From: Beverwykella pulmonaria
Lineage: Eukaryota; Ascomycota; Dothideomycetes; Pleosporales; Melanommataceae
Direction of reading: 5' to 3'
NCBI GenBank assembly: GCA_001599595.1
Contig: BCHH01000007.1
Coordinates: 2,188,719-2,252,718 of the forward strand
Length of the DNA: 64,000 bases
The notes under the pieces were generated by a model, which had not been told where the DNA came from, did not search any database, and saw only the letters and a program-made list of their open reading frames with translations. The translations under genes were made by a program, and so were the position numbers. This document shows positions 11,435 to 63,562 of this stretch, piece after piece (the stretch's first letter is position 1; each line of letters opens with the position of its first letter).

Positions 11435-11548
11435 TGTAAACAGGGAAAGGTTGTAAAGATGTGTATTGTGTGTGTGTTGTACATATGACGGACTAATTAG
11501 TCAGTAGCATATCCACGTGACCAGTAATGGTGTCCAAAGGTACCCATA
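11435..11548 (+). mobile_element. Degraded solo LTR, family LTR-1, copy A
   Basis: Starts TGTAAACAGGG and carries the family core GACGGACTAATTAGTCAGTA followed by CATATCCACGTGAC and GGTGTCC. The expected 3' end, GGCTTACA, is not intact and no clear target duplication is present, so this is an older copy than those at 22960, 61564 and 63428. The right boundary is approximate. Confidence 0.6.
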
Positions 11549-22959: not shown

Positions 22960-23090
22960 TGTAAGCAGGGTGCGGATAAGAGAGGGTGTAAAGATGTGTC
23001 TTATGTGTACGTATGTACAGCTAATATATATATTACGGACTGATTAGTCAGTGGCATATCTACGTGACGGTATGGTGCCCTGGGCTTACA
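22960..23090 (+). mobile_element. Solo LTR, family LTR-1, copy B (131 bp)
   Basis: Begins TGTAAGCAGGG and ends TGGGCTTACA, with a perfect 5-bp target duplication GATAT (22955-22959 and 23091-23095). It contains a TATA-like run (TAATATATATATTA) and the palindromic core ACTGATTAGTCAGT. It sits at the broken 5' end of the NB-ARC/TPR pseudogene. Confidence 0.85.
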
Positions 23091-58260: not shown

Positions 58261-58433
58261 CAGTCAAACCTCGTTATAACGATGTGGCGTTTTCGCCGAA
58301 TTTTGATCGTTATAACGAAATATCGCTATAGCGAGTCGAATTTGTATGAGAATTGGAGAATCGGGGCCATCAAAATCCATCGTTCTAACGAAATTGTGGC
58401 TTTCTTGGCAATCGTTATAACGAGGTTTGACTG
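58261..58433. mobile_element. Tc1/mariner-pogo-type MITE (173 bp)
   Basis: Both ends carry a perfect 23-bp inverted repeat starting CAGTCAAACCTCGTTATAAC and the element is flanked by TA on each side (58259-58260, 58434-58435), the target duplication of Tc1/mariner and pogo elements. Internal copies of CGTTATAACGAAAT and CGTTCTAACGAAAT add subterminal structure. It has no coding capacity, so it needs a transposase from elsewhere. Confidence 0.9.
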
Positions 58434-58969
58434 TATTGACGCCAACACGTATGGTGAAGCGAAATTGGCGCCCAAAATCCAGCAGATGTTTGCTTGTGAC
58501 CAACTGAAGTACGTTGGAGGATCAGCGGTGAAAGATGGGCAGATCTATCAAAAGTAACGAAAGAGCCGCAGCTTTGATGGCGTAAGAAACATTGGAGTGC
58601 GCAAAGAACCCTTTACCAATAACAATCCTATCACGCTCACCACAATATGTGTGCCAAGACATAGCCAACGAAATCTGGACACCTGCAGCGAACTCGAAGA
58701 CGAGCTGGCTTCCTTCTCTGCATCAAGCCATCTCCCATGGCGACGCCATGTGCTGTGTAGCGTGGTGTCAGGACAAAGTGTGGGCTTGCAGTAGTGTACG
58801 CGACGTTTATTGCATGACTCTTGAGTTTGGTGAAAGTGATCCGAGAGCCGAGATCCATTCTGAGTCATGGCCATCCCGCTGAGCGCTCCCCAGCTGAACC
58901 CCCCTCTCGCTCACTGTGCGCTCACCATTCGCCAATACGGCTGCCTGCCATAACCCCTGGGCGCTGGTG
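58434..58969. other. Gap before the P450 pseudogene
   Basis: No supported gene. Antisense and sense frames overlap without family resemblance. The extreme 5' end of the P450 gene may lie in the last 100 bases. Confidence 0.4.
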
Positions 58970-59873
58970 TGAAGACCTGGTTTACTCCTGTTCTTCCTGT
59001 CTTTCTTGCAGCATACTGGTTGCTTTGGACCTCTATGCTCGCGCTCTCCATCTATTTGCAAATGTCCTAGGTGCTTTCTGGCCATCCGTGTAGCGAACAT
59101 GGCATATGTACCACATCTACAAAGGCGACGTAACGGATCGCATGCGGGCTGTGCACGAGAAATATGATCTCCTTGTTCGCATTGCCCCGAACGAAGTCCT
59201 CTCCGCCGACCCTGAAGCGATCTAGAAGATTTGTCCCACCCAACGAACATTTGAAAAAGGCAGACTTCTACCTTGCGTGGCGCAATGGTTCACCTGGAGA
59301 ACGAGATGACTTTTTCACCTTCAACAGAGAGAGCTTGCCGAGTACGGGAGTATTGTAGGCGGCGTGTACAACATGACATCAGTAAACAAGAACGAGACGC
59401 TTCTCGACGACGTCCTAGATCTATTCATACAGCGATTGAACGGATTTGCGGAATAGGAGAAGTTTTTCGAGTTCGGAAGATGGCTCGAAATGTGAAGATT
59501 TGAGTTCTGTGAGGTCCTCCCGGCTCATCGGTCCTATGTGTGCTTTTAACAACGTGGGTGCCATCTTCATGGGCAAGCAATTCGGTTCCCTCGAAACAAG
59601 GACTGACTACGGCAGCTCTATGCACGTCCTGCATCTTGGATTCCCCTTTTTAATGTTCGTAGCGACAGCTCCACGATATGCTCAACCCTTCATTCTCTGT
59701 GGAGGTACGACCATCCCCAGGGTTTTCAAAGCGCTCATAGCCATTGGTGGAATCACAGATCGAGCGGAGAAGGAGATACAAGCGCCTCTGGCTCGGTCTG
59801 AAAAGACCACGGCGAAGCGGGTCGATCTCCTGTCCCAACTTATGACTATTGTTCACCAGAAGGGGGAGAGCGC

Positions 59874-60813
59874 CAGGGCTGCCAACCGTACGTAATACGT
59901 TACGGATCGCCCTTTTTGTGCCAGCTACTTCTCAGATTGTTGGTACGTTCGTACGTAAAGGGTGAATTGAGAGCCAAGTACGCAGCGTAAAAGTAACGTT
60001 TGAAATTGCTGCTACGTTTGTACGTTTCGCCTCAAAGTGAGAAGTTACGTGGGCGTAGTGGCTGTTATGTGAGCTGCTAGAGTAGTTAACTCGCTCTGNA
60101 CTACTCCCCTGCTCAGCCAGTTCTTTCCTATGCTGCTNGGGATTGATGATAGTGTTGCGAAACGAGTTTTCTTGTGANAGGAGCGATCGCCAGTCGTCAA
60201 ACTTGTCTGCCTTGTTGTGAGCTTTAGATTGAAGATTGTTGCGACAGCGTAAGATGAGATAGGCGGATTAATAACAATCTAAAGTGACGTTAGATTATTT
60301 ATTGTAGAGAGGCAGTTTGATTACCGCGGAGCTAGTTTTCACGCGATACCAGCTTGTTGTCGCACCGCGCCAGCGTTGAGGCGCGAGCTAGACGCCTATC
60401 ACTGAGCCTTGCCAATTCGAGAACCTGCTTGATGGGAGATAGAGGGCGTTGATGAGGCCGCAGATGATGCCTGCGAAGATCGAACAAATTGCTGCATCAC
60501 AATGATACGCAAATATGGGAGGTAGATGCCTAAAGCCACCAACGATCCCCCTATTGCGCGAGTCATAGGAGATTTGTGGCTGCAACAAAACATGAACTTT
60601 AGCAGCAAAAAGCTTCATGCCAACGGGTAAACAGCCTCCTCCAATGGGCACGAAACCCGCCACCAAAGTTACTAACGTATAGGCGTAGTACGTACAGGAT
60701 TTATGCCAAACGAAACGAAAACTACGACTCACAAATCGATTACGTTCGTACGTATCACGTGACCGTATAATTCACGTACTACGGGTACGTACTACGTCCG
60801 GTTGGCAGCCCTG
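59874..60813. mobile_element. Non-autonomous hAT-type element (940 bp)
   Basis: The ends are inverted repeats starting CAGGGCTGCCAACCG on one side and CAGGGCTGCCAACCG (read on the other strand) on the other, diverging one base later. An exact 8-bp target duplication GAGAGCGC flanks it (59866-59873, 60814-60821). CA(G/A)GG ends and 8-bp duplications are hAT hallmarks. No transposase frame is present. Subterminal DNA is rich in GTACGTA words, which may be transposase-binding sites. Three undetermined bases (N at 60099, 60138, 60178) lie inside, the only ones in the window. The P450 reading continues on both sides. Confidence 0.88.
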
Positions 60814-61563
60814 GAGAGCGCCGAGGTACACACCTAAGGAAGTGCGTACCGGGATGGTGGCTGGAACGTAAGTCTCTCAATCCCGCGCCCCTTTGAAGTT
60901 TCGTCAACATCCCAACACATTGGAATCATACTTGTGAAAAACGTACAGGGTACCGTAAATGGCCTTATCAGCTTTTCGGATACTTCGTTATCACGGAAAG
61001 CACTCGCAGAGCCTTCCAGGCTAACCTTTCGCGATAGGCTTGCTAGTACCGATAGTACCACAGCAACAACACAAACTATCTTCTACTACCTAATGAAAAC
61101 CCCTGAAGAAACCTGAAACCTTAGGAAAGGCGCAGGCCGAAATGATGCTGCGTTTCGCCGACAAAACCCTTTCGCGCCTTTTTTGACGACAGCTTGGAGT
61201 AGGGAAGCTCGTTGGCTTTGTTATACTGAATGTGATGCGCGCATTGATTCCGCCTGGCAAGTGCCTATACTTCGCTTTTCTCCTCCACAAGCCTTGAGCT
61301 CTCAGGTATTCACATACCAATTGGATACATTTATTGGTATATCTCTGACTTGCGTCCGGCAGAATAAAGACTTCGGTTAAGATTCTGATGCGTCCCGCCG
61401 CGAGAGATGGCTTGAGAGTGAAGGGCGAACTCGGGCCATGGATCGGGCGATGTTAAATCTTGGTGCAGGTACTAGGACCTGCATTGGAAGTCTTGTAAGT
61501 ATTATCTATATTAGATTACGACGACCGCTATTCATTCCTACCAGGTCTTTCTCTCGGAGATCA

Positions 61564-61681
61564 TGTAAGCAGGGTGTAGGTTGAAGAGTATGAAGGTGTG
61601 TGGTATGTACAGCTGATATATATGACGGTCTGATTAGTCAGTGACATATCCACGTGGCTGGTATGTTGTCCTGGGCTTACA
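61564..61681 (+). mobile_element. Solo LTR, family LTR-1, copy C (118 bp)
   Basis: Starts TGTAAGCAGGG, ends TGGGCTTACA and is flanked by the perfect duplication GATCA (61559-61563, 61682-61686). Shares the core TCTGATTAGTCAGTGACATA. Inserted in the last exon region of the P450 pseudogene, whose reading resumes directly after it. Confidence 0.88.
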
Positions 61682-61757
61682 GATCAACAAGGTAGTTCCA
61701 GAAATTCTGCGCAGATACGATATCGAAATGGCTCACAGCCAACCTTGGAGTACCATT

Positions 61758-61948
61758 TGTCGGCCAGTGGGTCACATGATGAGCCACCTCGATGTTTGCC
61801 CATATGACTCACTTCCATGTTTGTTATGACTACCTGGCAGGCTCCTACCGTGCCTGGTAAGACTCTAAATATTTCTTCGGTAGCTCCTCCGTAGAATCAA
61901 TACAACAACAATCATTGCACTCTCTATCTACTTTGTCACATCACGACA
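61758..61948 (+). mobile_element. Solo LTR, family LTR-2, copy 2 (191 bp)
   Basis: Starts TGTCGGCCAGTGGG, ends CATCACGACA and is flanked by the perfect duplication CCATT (61753-61757, 61949-61953). It is the reverse-oriented partner of the copy at 1569-1757, sharing blocks such as CTCCGTAGAATCAATA and CACATGATGAG. It splits the codons near the C-terminus of the P450 pseudogene. Confidence 0.88.
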
Positions 61949-62050
61949 CCATTGTCGCGCTTTTCATTACACAGTGGAATGTAATTTGCAACATCAGGAA
62001 AAGGGAAGCTTGCGTAATCAAGACTGAGAGTCTTGAACATGTCTGGATAT

Positions 62051-62420
62051 GATAAGCGTTTCAAAATGATATGCACAAAAGAAGAGAATTGAGCATCCAA
62101 CAGCTATAGGCATTTCTTAAGCCAAACGTGACATGTGCATTATTCTGGGCTGCTCAAATTGGCCTCTCGTCCCAACTTGTTTACGTCCTGGAAGCCTGGA
62201 ATGCGAATGCCGCCAGATGCATTTCCACTGCCACCCCTATTGAGAATGCACTTCTGCCACTGGACGAAGAACAATCATCTAAGCTCCATCATGAATTGTC
62301 TCTATCCGGTAATCCAAACAGATCCAGCTCTAGGAAATGCTCCTAATAATTGAGGTCAAGCCACATTCTGTTAGCCTAGAGACGTCTTAAGTTACTGGCT
62401 CTTATCTCATCTACTGAATT
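62051..62420. other. Short gap, no supported gene
   Basis: About 370 bases after the P450 pseudogene. Two overlapping frames at 62128-62353 have no family. Confidence 0.4.
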
Positions 62421-62786
62421 TGTCACGTGTATCACATGTCATATCATAGGTCCTCTTCTAGCTAGCTCACCCTTCATGGGTATATATAGTCGTCGTGCGA
62501 GCAGTCAGCTCTTCACGACTTCCACACACTTTACACACACTTTGTAACGACTAGCACGTGGTAGGAAAAGGGACACGTGGCTACTCGCTTATGGCAGCTA
62601 AGGCGCAGACACTTAGCCCCAACACTATATATATTATACTACACAAGGAATACTTGGTTCAAGTATTCTTGTGCGTACCTTTTGGTCAAGTGGGGAAGTC
62701 ACGTAGTATTGGCTTAGTAGGCAGGGCGCCTACCTCATTACACACTTTGCCCATCAGACGATTGACTTCCTCTTCTCATTGTGACA
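62421..62786 (+). mobile_element. Solo LTR, family LTR-3, copy 2, carrying a nested insertion
   Basis: The ends are TGTCACGTG and CATTGTGACA, with near-matching 5-bp flanks (GAATT and GTATT). The left arm has GGTATATATAGTCGTCGTGC, probably the LTR TATA box. Matches the copy at 53284-53440 once the 200-bp insertion at 62543-62742 is removed, leaving about 160 bp. Confidence 0.7.
62543..62742 (+). mobile_element. Solo LTR-like element, family LTR-4 (200 bp), nested in LTR-3
   Basis: Starts TGTAACGACTAG, ends CCTCATTACA and has a perfect 5-bp duplication CACTT (62538-62542, 62743-62747). The inner part holds CACTATATATATTATACTAC. The interrupted LTR-3 sequence resumes immediately after. Only one copy in this window. 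Confidence 0.75.
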
Positions 62787-63427
62787 GTATTATATAGCTG
62801 GATCAGCTGATCGTACTTGAGAGGGATTTCGTAAGTAGGGAGCTTGAATTTAGGTGTACGATTGTATTGAGACGAATCCTTGAGGTTGACTCAGGGCGTC
62901 GAGAAGACTATGTACTCCTGCATAGTCATGTGGTCTCCCTCGGGCCCGACGCCTGCCCGGGGCCTTCCGGGGTAGGTGATGTATAATATTGTCACAGTAC
63001 CTCACCAAAGACAGATTACCCACATACACATCTTTATACACTACCCTTGCCTGCATATCTATTAACCATATTCCTGTAAAGATCTTACACTGACTAAGAT
63101 AATACTAGCCCTGAAGGGTATTAGAAGATATTTAATAGAGGACTAGTAGTCGGTAATCTAGGTATGAATAGGGTCAGATCACTGGTATGATACTAGGACA
63201 GTAAAGGGACCTATATGGAGGCCCTTCGGGAAATAGAAGAATTTCTCACAGAACTACTCTAAAAACAGACTGACCGTAACACTAAAAAACAAAAGCTTAA
63301 AATACGTCGTATACGCGTATAATTACAGATTTATATATCATACCGTCAAGAAAAATCACCTGTACTGTACGTACATGCGCCATACTGTAATGGGACATTG
63401 CACTGACAAGTTTGAGAGTAGATAATC
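62787..63427. other. Repeat-like tract, no supported gene
   Basis: About 640 bases. A GC-rich island (62939-62972, CCCGACGCCTGCCCGGGGCC) stands out in A+T-rich DNA. Read on the minus strand, 63028-63062 (GTGTATAAAGATGTGTATGT) resembles the LTR-1 left arm and may be a further degenerate copy. Confidence 0.4.
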
Positions 63428-63562
63428 TGTAAGCTGGAGCGTGGAGGAGAAGGTGTCAAGATGTGTCTTGTATGTGATGTATGTACAGCTGATATATATA
63501 TATATGACGGACTGATTAGTCAGTGGCATGTCCACGTGACATTATGGTGTCCTCGGCTTACA
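63428..63562 (+). mobile_element. Solo LTR, family LTR-1, copy D (135 bp)
   Basis: Starts TGTAAGCTGG, ends CTCGGCTTACA and has the perfect duplication TAATC (63423-63427, 63563-63567). Contains CTGATATATATATATATGAC and the palindromic core ACTGATTAGTCAGT. Confidence 0.88.

What the first reader, a model, noticed from the sequence alone, without database searches (positions are those of the whole stretch)
58970..62050. One P450 gene hit by three different transposons, each with a perfect target-site duplication
P450 reading can be followed across a 940-bp hAT-type element (8-bp duplication GAGAGCGC), a 118-bp LTR (GATCA) and a 191-bp LTR (CCATT). After each insertion the protein resumes at the interrupted residue, for example WSTI continuing as VALFITQWNV. 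The locus can therefore be un-nested exactly to give the ancestral gene order and a relative record of transposon activity. Intact duplications imply fairly recent insertions into a gene that was perhaps already dead.
Basis: partly seen in the sequence, partly recalled or inferred. Interest (0 to 1): 0.75.

Follow-up and report, generated by a model that had tools for sequence, protein, structure and literature searches.

The report
Dead P450 gene with three transposons
A decayed fungal cytochrome P450 gene carries three separate small transposon insertions, each with the usual short duplication at its edges; this is an ordinary pseudogene in a transposon-rich stretch, and the insertions cannot be put in order by nesting.

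Summary
Pieces of one cytochrome P450 lie in order on the + strand (58955-62010). They are interrupted by a 940-bp hAT-type element (59874-60813, duplication GAGAGCGC), a 118-bp LTR (61564-61681, GATCA) and a 191-bp LTR-like element (61758-61948, CCATT). At the 191-bp site the protein resumes exactly against 3 of 4 homologs. At the 118-bp site it fits, but the left exon is only six residues, matched by eye. At the hAT site order and spacing fit, but the left-hand frame meets a stop five codons later.

The wider interpretation holds only partly. The gene is dead: four in-frame stops and five frameshifts besides the insertions. The insertions lie side by side, not nested, so removing them gives no order. 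Intact duplications do not show youth: 8 of 15 copies of the 191-bp family keep a perfect one, including the two most diverged. Divergence estimates for the three insertions overlap. The stop count suggests the gene was dead before the hAT arrived; whether an LTR killed it is open.

The 118-bp element is a solo LTR of a Copia retrotransposon found full-length elsewhere in the genome. Part of the hAT interior is probably a collapsed assembly stretch. Ordinary; low interest.

The parts
58955..59873 (+). P450 pseudogene, 5' part (about residues 9-301 of homologs), with stops at 59091, 59223, 59454 and frameshifts near 59029, 59250 and 59326-59338
59866..59873 (.). left copy of 8-bp target-site duplication GAGAGCGC
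59874..60813 (.). 940-bp non-autonomous hAT-type element; interior 59907-60284 probably a collapsed assembly stretch
60814..60821 (.). right copy of GAGAGCGC
60822..61563 (+). P450 pseudogene, middle part (about residues 302-471), containing stretch 60855-61040 with no other match in the genome (probable intron), frameshifts near 61291 and 61329, stop at 61378, heme-binding motif at 61459-61488
61559..61563 (.). left copy of 5-bp duplication GATCA
61564..61681 (-). 118-bp solo LTR of a Copia retrotransposon, antisense to the P450
61682..61686 (.). right copy of GATCA
61683..61757 (+). P450 pseudogene, piece INKVVPEILRRYDIEMAHSQPWSTI (about residues 472-496)
61753..61757 (.). left copy of 5-bp duplication CCATT
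61758..61948 (.). 191-bp solo-LTR-like element (TGTCG...CGACA); 179 end-motif matches in the genome (orientation of a parent element unknown)
61949..61953 (.). right copy of CCATT
61954..62010 (+). P450 pseudogene, C-terminal piece VALFITQWNVICNIRKREA (from residue 497)

Best explanation
This is one decayed cytochrome P450 gene of a Pleosporales fungus. It accumulated point and indel lesions and took three independent insertions at three separate sites: a non-autonomous hAT element moved by a transposase acting from elsewhere, a solo LTR left after recombination within an inserted Copia retrotransposon, and a 191-bp solo-LTR-like element. Each insertion duplicated its target in the usual way for its kind (8, 5 and 5 bp). 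Shown here: gene identity and order, the elements and duplications, the family copies, the other lesions. Inferred: solo LTRs by recombination (established for LTR elements in general, recalled), death before the hAT insertion (about 0.85), death before any insertion (about 0.6).
For: Order and identity of P450 pieces against own-genome paralogs L010 and L011 and the 120 listed homologs; ranking again with the 28 further proteins left the same best relatives (148 proteins). Residue-exact continuity at the 191-bp site for 3 of 4 homologs. Terminal piece unique in the window. Perfect duplications. hAT family: seven further near-full-length copies at 90-97% identity; 6 of 8 copies including this one have perfect 8-bp duplications; a related element with both matching ends (C4:3233614-3233900 and 3234806-3235059) holds a hAT dimerisation-domain remnant at 3233888-3234058. 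118-bp family: L043 has two identical 133-bp LTRs 5298 bp apart, outer duplication CTATC/CTATC, a Copia reverse-transcriptase match between. 191-bp family: 179 matches to its end motif with up to 3 mismatches, against 4 to the control. Lesions: all four homologs tried show stops at 59091, 59223, 59454, 61378 and frameshifts near 59029, 59250, 59326-59338, 61291 and 61329. Four or more stops come up in 2.5% of trials at divergence 0.02, about the hAT's estimate.
Against: Exact resumption across the hAT is not demonstrable (stop at 60835), and the left side of the 118-bp site is a six-residue match by eye. For one of four homologs the C-terminal piece did not align to the C terminus. No relative with an empty site at the same locus was available; continuity rests on paralogs and homologs whose pieces are 40-77% identical. 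Pfam on ten separate pieces gave only one sub-threshold P450 match (E 0.056). No full-length partner was found for the 191-bp element in the stretches looked at. Some single-base frameshifts could be assembly errors.
Confidence: 0.93

Rival explanations
1. One of the two LTR insertions killed the gene and the stops and frameshifts came afterwards.
For: At the terminal-branch estimates for the LTRs (0.044 and 0.057) four or more later stops come up in about 20% and 32% of trials.
Against: Four stops plus five frameshifts in the aligned codons fit a neutral divergence of roughly 0.08-0.10 better (55% and 72% of trials); terminal branches are upper bounds on the time since insertion.
Confidence: 0.33
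2. The 191-bp element is not an LTR but a short non-autonomous element of another class with 5-bp duplications.
For: 179 end-motif matches, yet no paired copy with a shared outer duplication was seen. Three same-strand pairs 4.8-5.1 kb apart were read: in two of them each copy has its own duplication (one with a mismatch), in the third one copy is truncated, and the sequence between is unrelated among the three.
Against: TG...CA ends, short inverted tips TGTCG/CGACA and 5-bp duplications are the LTR signature (recalled); families surviving only as solo LTRs are common (recalled). A fourth same-strand pair (C3 near 900948 and 906112) and a diverged second copy 1.25 kb from one copy (L030; ends not recognisable) were not resolved.
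Confidence: 0.15
3. The P450 reading is a chance or assembly join of pieces from different genes.
For: Collapse inside the hAT; pieces are short and individually weak in Pfam.
Against: The pieces that match do so in order, with largely the same best relatives; the 191-bp junction is residue-exact; an assembler is unlikely to invent matching duplications.
Confidence: 0.02
4. The gene is still functional and the elements are removed as introns.
For: None found; not searched for in RNA data.
Against: Four in-frame stops and five frameshifts outside the elements.
Confidence: 0.01

Closest known systems
Fungal P450s of the group named 'cytochrome P450' or 'pisatin demethylase' by their sources, mostly from Dothideomycetes (Pfam PF00067), e.g. 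Melanomma pulvis-pyrius protein P0001
   Same: 10 of 16 pieces align in order along residues 15-495, 40-77% identity per piece; heme-binding motif kept (motif recalled; alignment)
   Different: Broken by stops, frameshifts and three insertions; no nearer intact ortholog among the 148 proteins listed by two searches (capped lists)
Non-autonomous hAT elements
   Same: 8-bp duplication, CAGGG inverted ends, a relative with the same ends carrying a hAT dimerisation-domain remnant
   Different: The four ORFs of this copy that were tested show no domain
Solo LTRs of Copia retrotransposons
   Same: Same LTR family as a full-length Copia element in the genome; 5-bp duplication
   Different: 118 bp rather than the 129-140 bp of the other copies measured
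Solo LTRs of unassigned LTR retrotransposons (191-bp element)
   Same: TG...CA ends, 5-bp duplications, many dispersed copies
   Different: No full-length parent found in the stretches read

Membership tests
Cytochrome P450 (PF00067) | Homology along the length to known P450s | tested here: met
   10 of 16 pieces match in order to P0001, which carries PF00067; tblastn E 1e-36 with the paralog
Cytochrome P450 (PF00067) | Pfam profile match above cut-off by the pieces themselves | tested here: inconclusive
   1 of 10 pieces matched, E 0.056, 12.6 bits against cut-off 22.8
Cytochrome P450 (PF00067) | Heme-binding cysteine motif | tested here: met
   LGAGTRTCIG at 61459-61488 aligned to the homologs' GxGTRTCxG; motif recalled
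Cytochrome P450 (PF00067) | Open reading frame able to make the enzyme | tested here: not met
   Four stops and five frameshifts: it is a pseudogene
hAT transposon (non-autonomous) | 8-bp target-site duplication and terminal inverted repeats | tested here: met
   6 of 8 copies with perfect 8-bp duplication, ends placed within 4 bases by best fit; first 15 bases of the ends identical
hAT transposon (non-autonomous) | hAT transposase in an element with the same ends | tested here: met
   Dimer_Tnp_hAT remnant (with stops) between matching ends on C4; no intact source was sought further
Copia LTR (118-bp element) | Paired LTRs flanking a Copia reverse transcriptase in a sister copy | tested here: met
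   L043: identical 133-bp LTRs, RVT_2 match between (itself with 7 stops), CTATC/CTATC outside
LTR retrotransposon (191-bp element) | TG...CA ends with 4-6 bp duplication | tested here: met
   8 of 15 copies perfect, 4 more with one mismatch, 3 with two or more
LTR retrotransposon (191-bp element) | Full-length sister copy with internal genes | tested here: inconclusive
   Not found near one RVT_1 hit (L044) or in three close pairs; only part of the copies examined

The most novel reading that the evidence does not exclude
The 191-bp family is a successful short element (179 end-motif matches) with no full-length parent in this genome, either a non-LTR-type non-autonomous element with 5-bp duplications or an LTR family wholly reduced to solo units.
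Probability: 0.15. Interest if true: 0.3.

Novelty: new member of a known kind. Interest (0 to 1): 0.15.

Why it matters
Modest. The locus is a clean, checkable example of a dead gene collecting insertions, useful as PCR markers between isolates. It also shows two cautions: an intact target-site duplication is weak evidence of youth, and the apparent youth of a repeat copy can be an assembly effect.

Tried and rejected
Order of insertion from nesting: rejected, the three do not overlap. Order from divergence: tried, ranges overlap; the 118-bp tree rests on 16 mostly partial copies (78-122 bases). Three insertions as a significant cluster: not supported; with 8 or 10 randomly placed insertions in 64 kb, three or more within 2.1 kb occur in 13% or 26% of trials, and another stretch about 65 kb away (L045, C7:2183407-2186362) holds copies of the same three families within 3 kb. 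RIP mutation: the indices TpA/ApT and (CpA+TpG)/(ApC+GpT) are 0.63 and 1.20 for the 5' P450 part and 1.00 and 1.04 for the middle part, but 1.23 and 0.93 for the hAT copy and 1.16 and 0.98 for the right flank, which by the usual recalled thresholds is RIP-like. The hAT copy and L013 differ by 18 transitions and 3 transversions, only 2 of the transitions in CpA/TpA context. So RIP of the elements is not excluded and would inflate their estimated ages. A further insertion in the long gap 60855-61040: the stretch has no other match in the genome. Full-length parent of the 191-bp element: not found in what was read. The first hAT age estimate (0.013) was replaced after masking the collapsed interior (0.022). 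Search of solved structures with the alignment A1: 242 distinct sequences matched at E up to 1e-10, the 60 shown being P450s, nothing specific to this gene. Literature: four full-text searches; one listed 2 papers, one listed 15 of 56, one found none, one found 1 general paper. Only listings and abstract starts were seen; no paper was opened.

Full report
What is there. The window lies at C7:2188719-2252718 of a 45.6-Mb genome in 31 contigs. An intact P450 in the same genome is 81% identical to one of Melanomma pulvis-pyrius and 78% to one of Pleomassaria siparia, so the host is most likely a Pleosporales fungus (order recalled); the species is not known. From 58955 to 62010 the + strand holds pieces of a P450 in order. 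Two paralogs with open exons in the same genome (L010, L011; 54% identical to each other) match its longest piece at 41% and 39%. Of 16 pieces searched apart, 10 map in order to residues 15-495 of P0001 and 6 find no match to it. Ranking 148 listed proteins and the two paralogs leaves P0001 and the own-genome paralog p10 as the nearest relatives.

The insertions. The coordinates and duplications in the finding are exact. At the 191-bp site the left piece ends at residue 495 and the right one starts at 498, with the two residues between encoded at the site; this holds for p10 and P0001 and with the same spacing for P0013, while for P0010 the right piece aligned elsewhere. The right piece is by far the best placement in the window for three homologs. 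At the 118-bp site the right side starts at residue 472 of p10 and P0001, and the left exon reads VFLSEI, which fits the homologs by eye but is too short to score. At the hAT site the left part ends at residue 299 and the right part is next recognised at residue 317 (p10, P0001); a short resemblance between these was seen by eye only, and the left-hand frame meets TAA at 60835-60837.

The elements. The hAT-type element has seven further near-full-length copies at 90-97%; 6 of the 8 copies have perfect 8-bp duplications. A related element with both matching ends on C4 holds a remnant of the hAT dimerisation domain. Four ORFs of the window copy show no domain. The 118-bp element belongs to an LTR family that appears in L043 as two identical 133-bp LTRs around a Copia reverse-transcriptase match, with CTATC on both outer sides; that match itself contains 7 stops, so the element is full-length in layout, not intact. 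Read against it, the window copy is antisense to the P450. Of 7 single copies of this family measured, 6 have perfect duplications; other fetched copies (among them those of L003, L004, L006, L008 and L042) were not measured. The 191-bp element has 179 end-motif matches in the genome against 4 for the control (about 100 places were listed). Of 15 copies examined, 8 have a perfect duplication, 4 one mismatch and 3 two or more (ends were placed within 4 bases by best fit). No full-length form was found in what was read.

State of the gene. All four homologs tried show in-frame stops at 59091, 59223, 59454 and 61378 and frameshifts near 59029, 59250, 59326-59338, 61291 and 61329; a further shift at 59541 falls at an intron position and was not counted. 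Simulated neutral decay of the paralog over 479 codons gives four or more stops in 2.5% of trials at divergence 0.02, 20% at 0.044, 32% at 0.057 and 55% at 0.08. So the gene was probably dead before the hAT came (terminal branch 0.022), but an LTR may have been the killing event.

Dating limits. The window's only three unknown bases (60099, 60138, 60178) lie in the hAT copy. Its nearest relative L013 has unknown bases at the same columns, and the two are otherwise identical over window 59907-60284, while the rest differs at about 4% (21 substitutions). This looks like one collapsed read consensus used for both copies, so the interior and the 97% identity are not independent evidence. Masking it moves the branch from 0.013 to 0.022. 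The bootstrap ranges for the three insertions overlap. RIP-like dinucleotide indices in the hAT copy mean its branch may overstate its age. Perfect duplications occur in 191-bp copies with branches of 0.092 and 0.168, so they say little about age.

Verdict. Observation confirmed, with weaker continuity at two of the three sites than claimed. An ordinary pseudogene with three independent insertions; no nesting record, no order. Membership of the P450 in any toxin or other pathway is not shown; some homologs bear source names such as pisatin demethylase or acrts1, and none of the ten other window ORFs tested with Pfam pointed to a biosynthetic cluster (10 of 38 ORFs of 150 aa or more, without intron modelling).

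Noticed in passing
62418-62787 with 62543-62742: Likely true nesting just downstream: a 200-bp solo-LTR-like element (TGTAACG...CATTACA, CACTT on both sides; three other copies at 96-99%) sits inside another repeat with at least 35 matching places; that the outer repeat continues beyond it rests on one copy (C21:302333-302503).
   Followed up: partly
60099, 60138, 60178 and L013: The window's only unknown bases recur at the same columns of the nearest hAT copy, which is otherwise identical over about 378 bases: probably a collapsed assembly stretch.
   Followed up: yes
58261-58433: A 173-bp element with TA on both sides and ends CAGTCAAACCTCGTTATAACGA (pogo/Tigger-like by recall), three further near-full copies at 89-98%.
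   Followed up: partly
22960-23090 and 63428-63562: Two more solo LTRs of the 118-bp Copia family with duplications GATAT and TAATC; a partial copy at 11480-11535.
   Followed up: yes
1569-1757: Second 191-bp family copy, reverse orientation, duplication CTTCT.
   Followed up: yes
L043:967-6397: Full-length Copia element with identical LTRs, which suggests recent insertion, although its reverse-transcriptase match has 7 stops; the sequence after its 5' LTR resembles a half-tRNA primer site of initiator tRNA-Met (recalled, not tested).
   Followed up: partly
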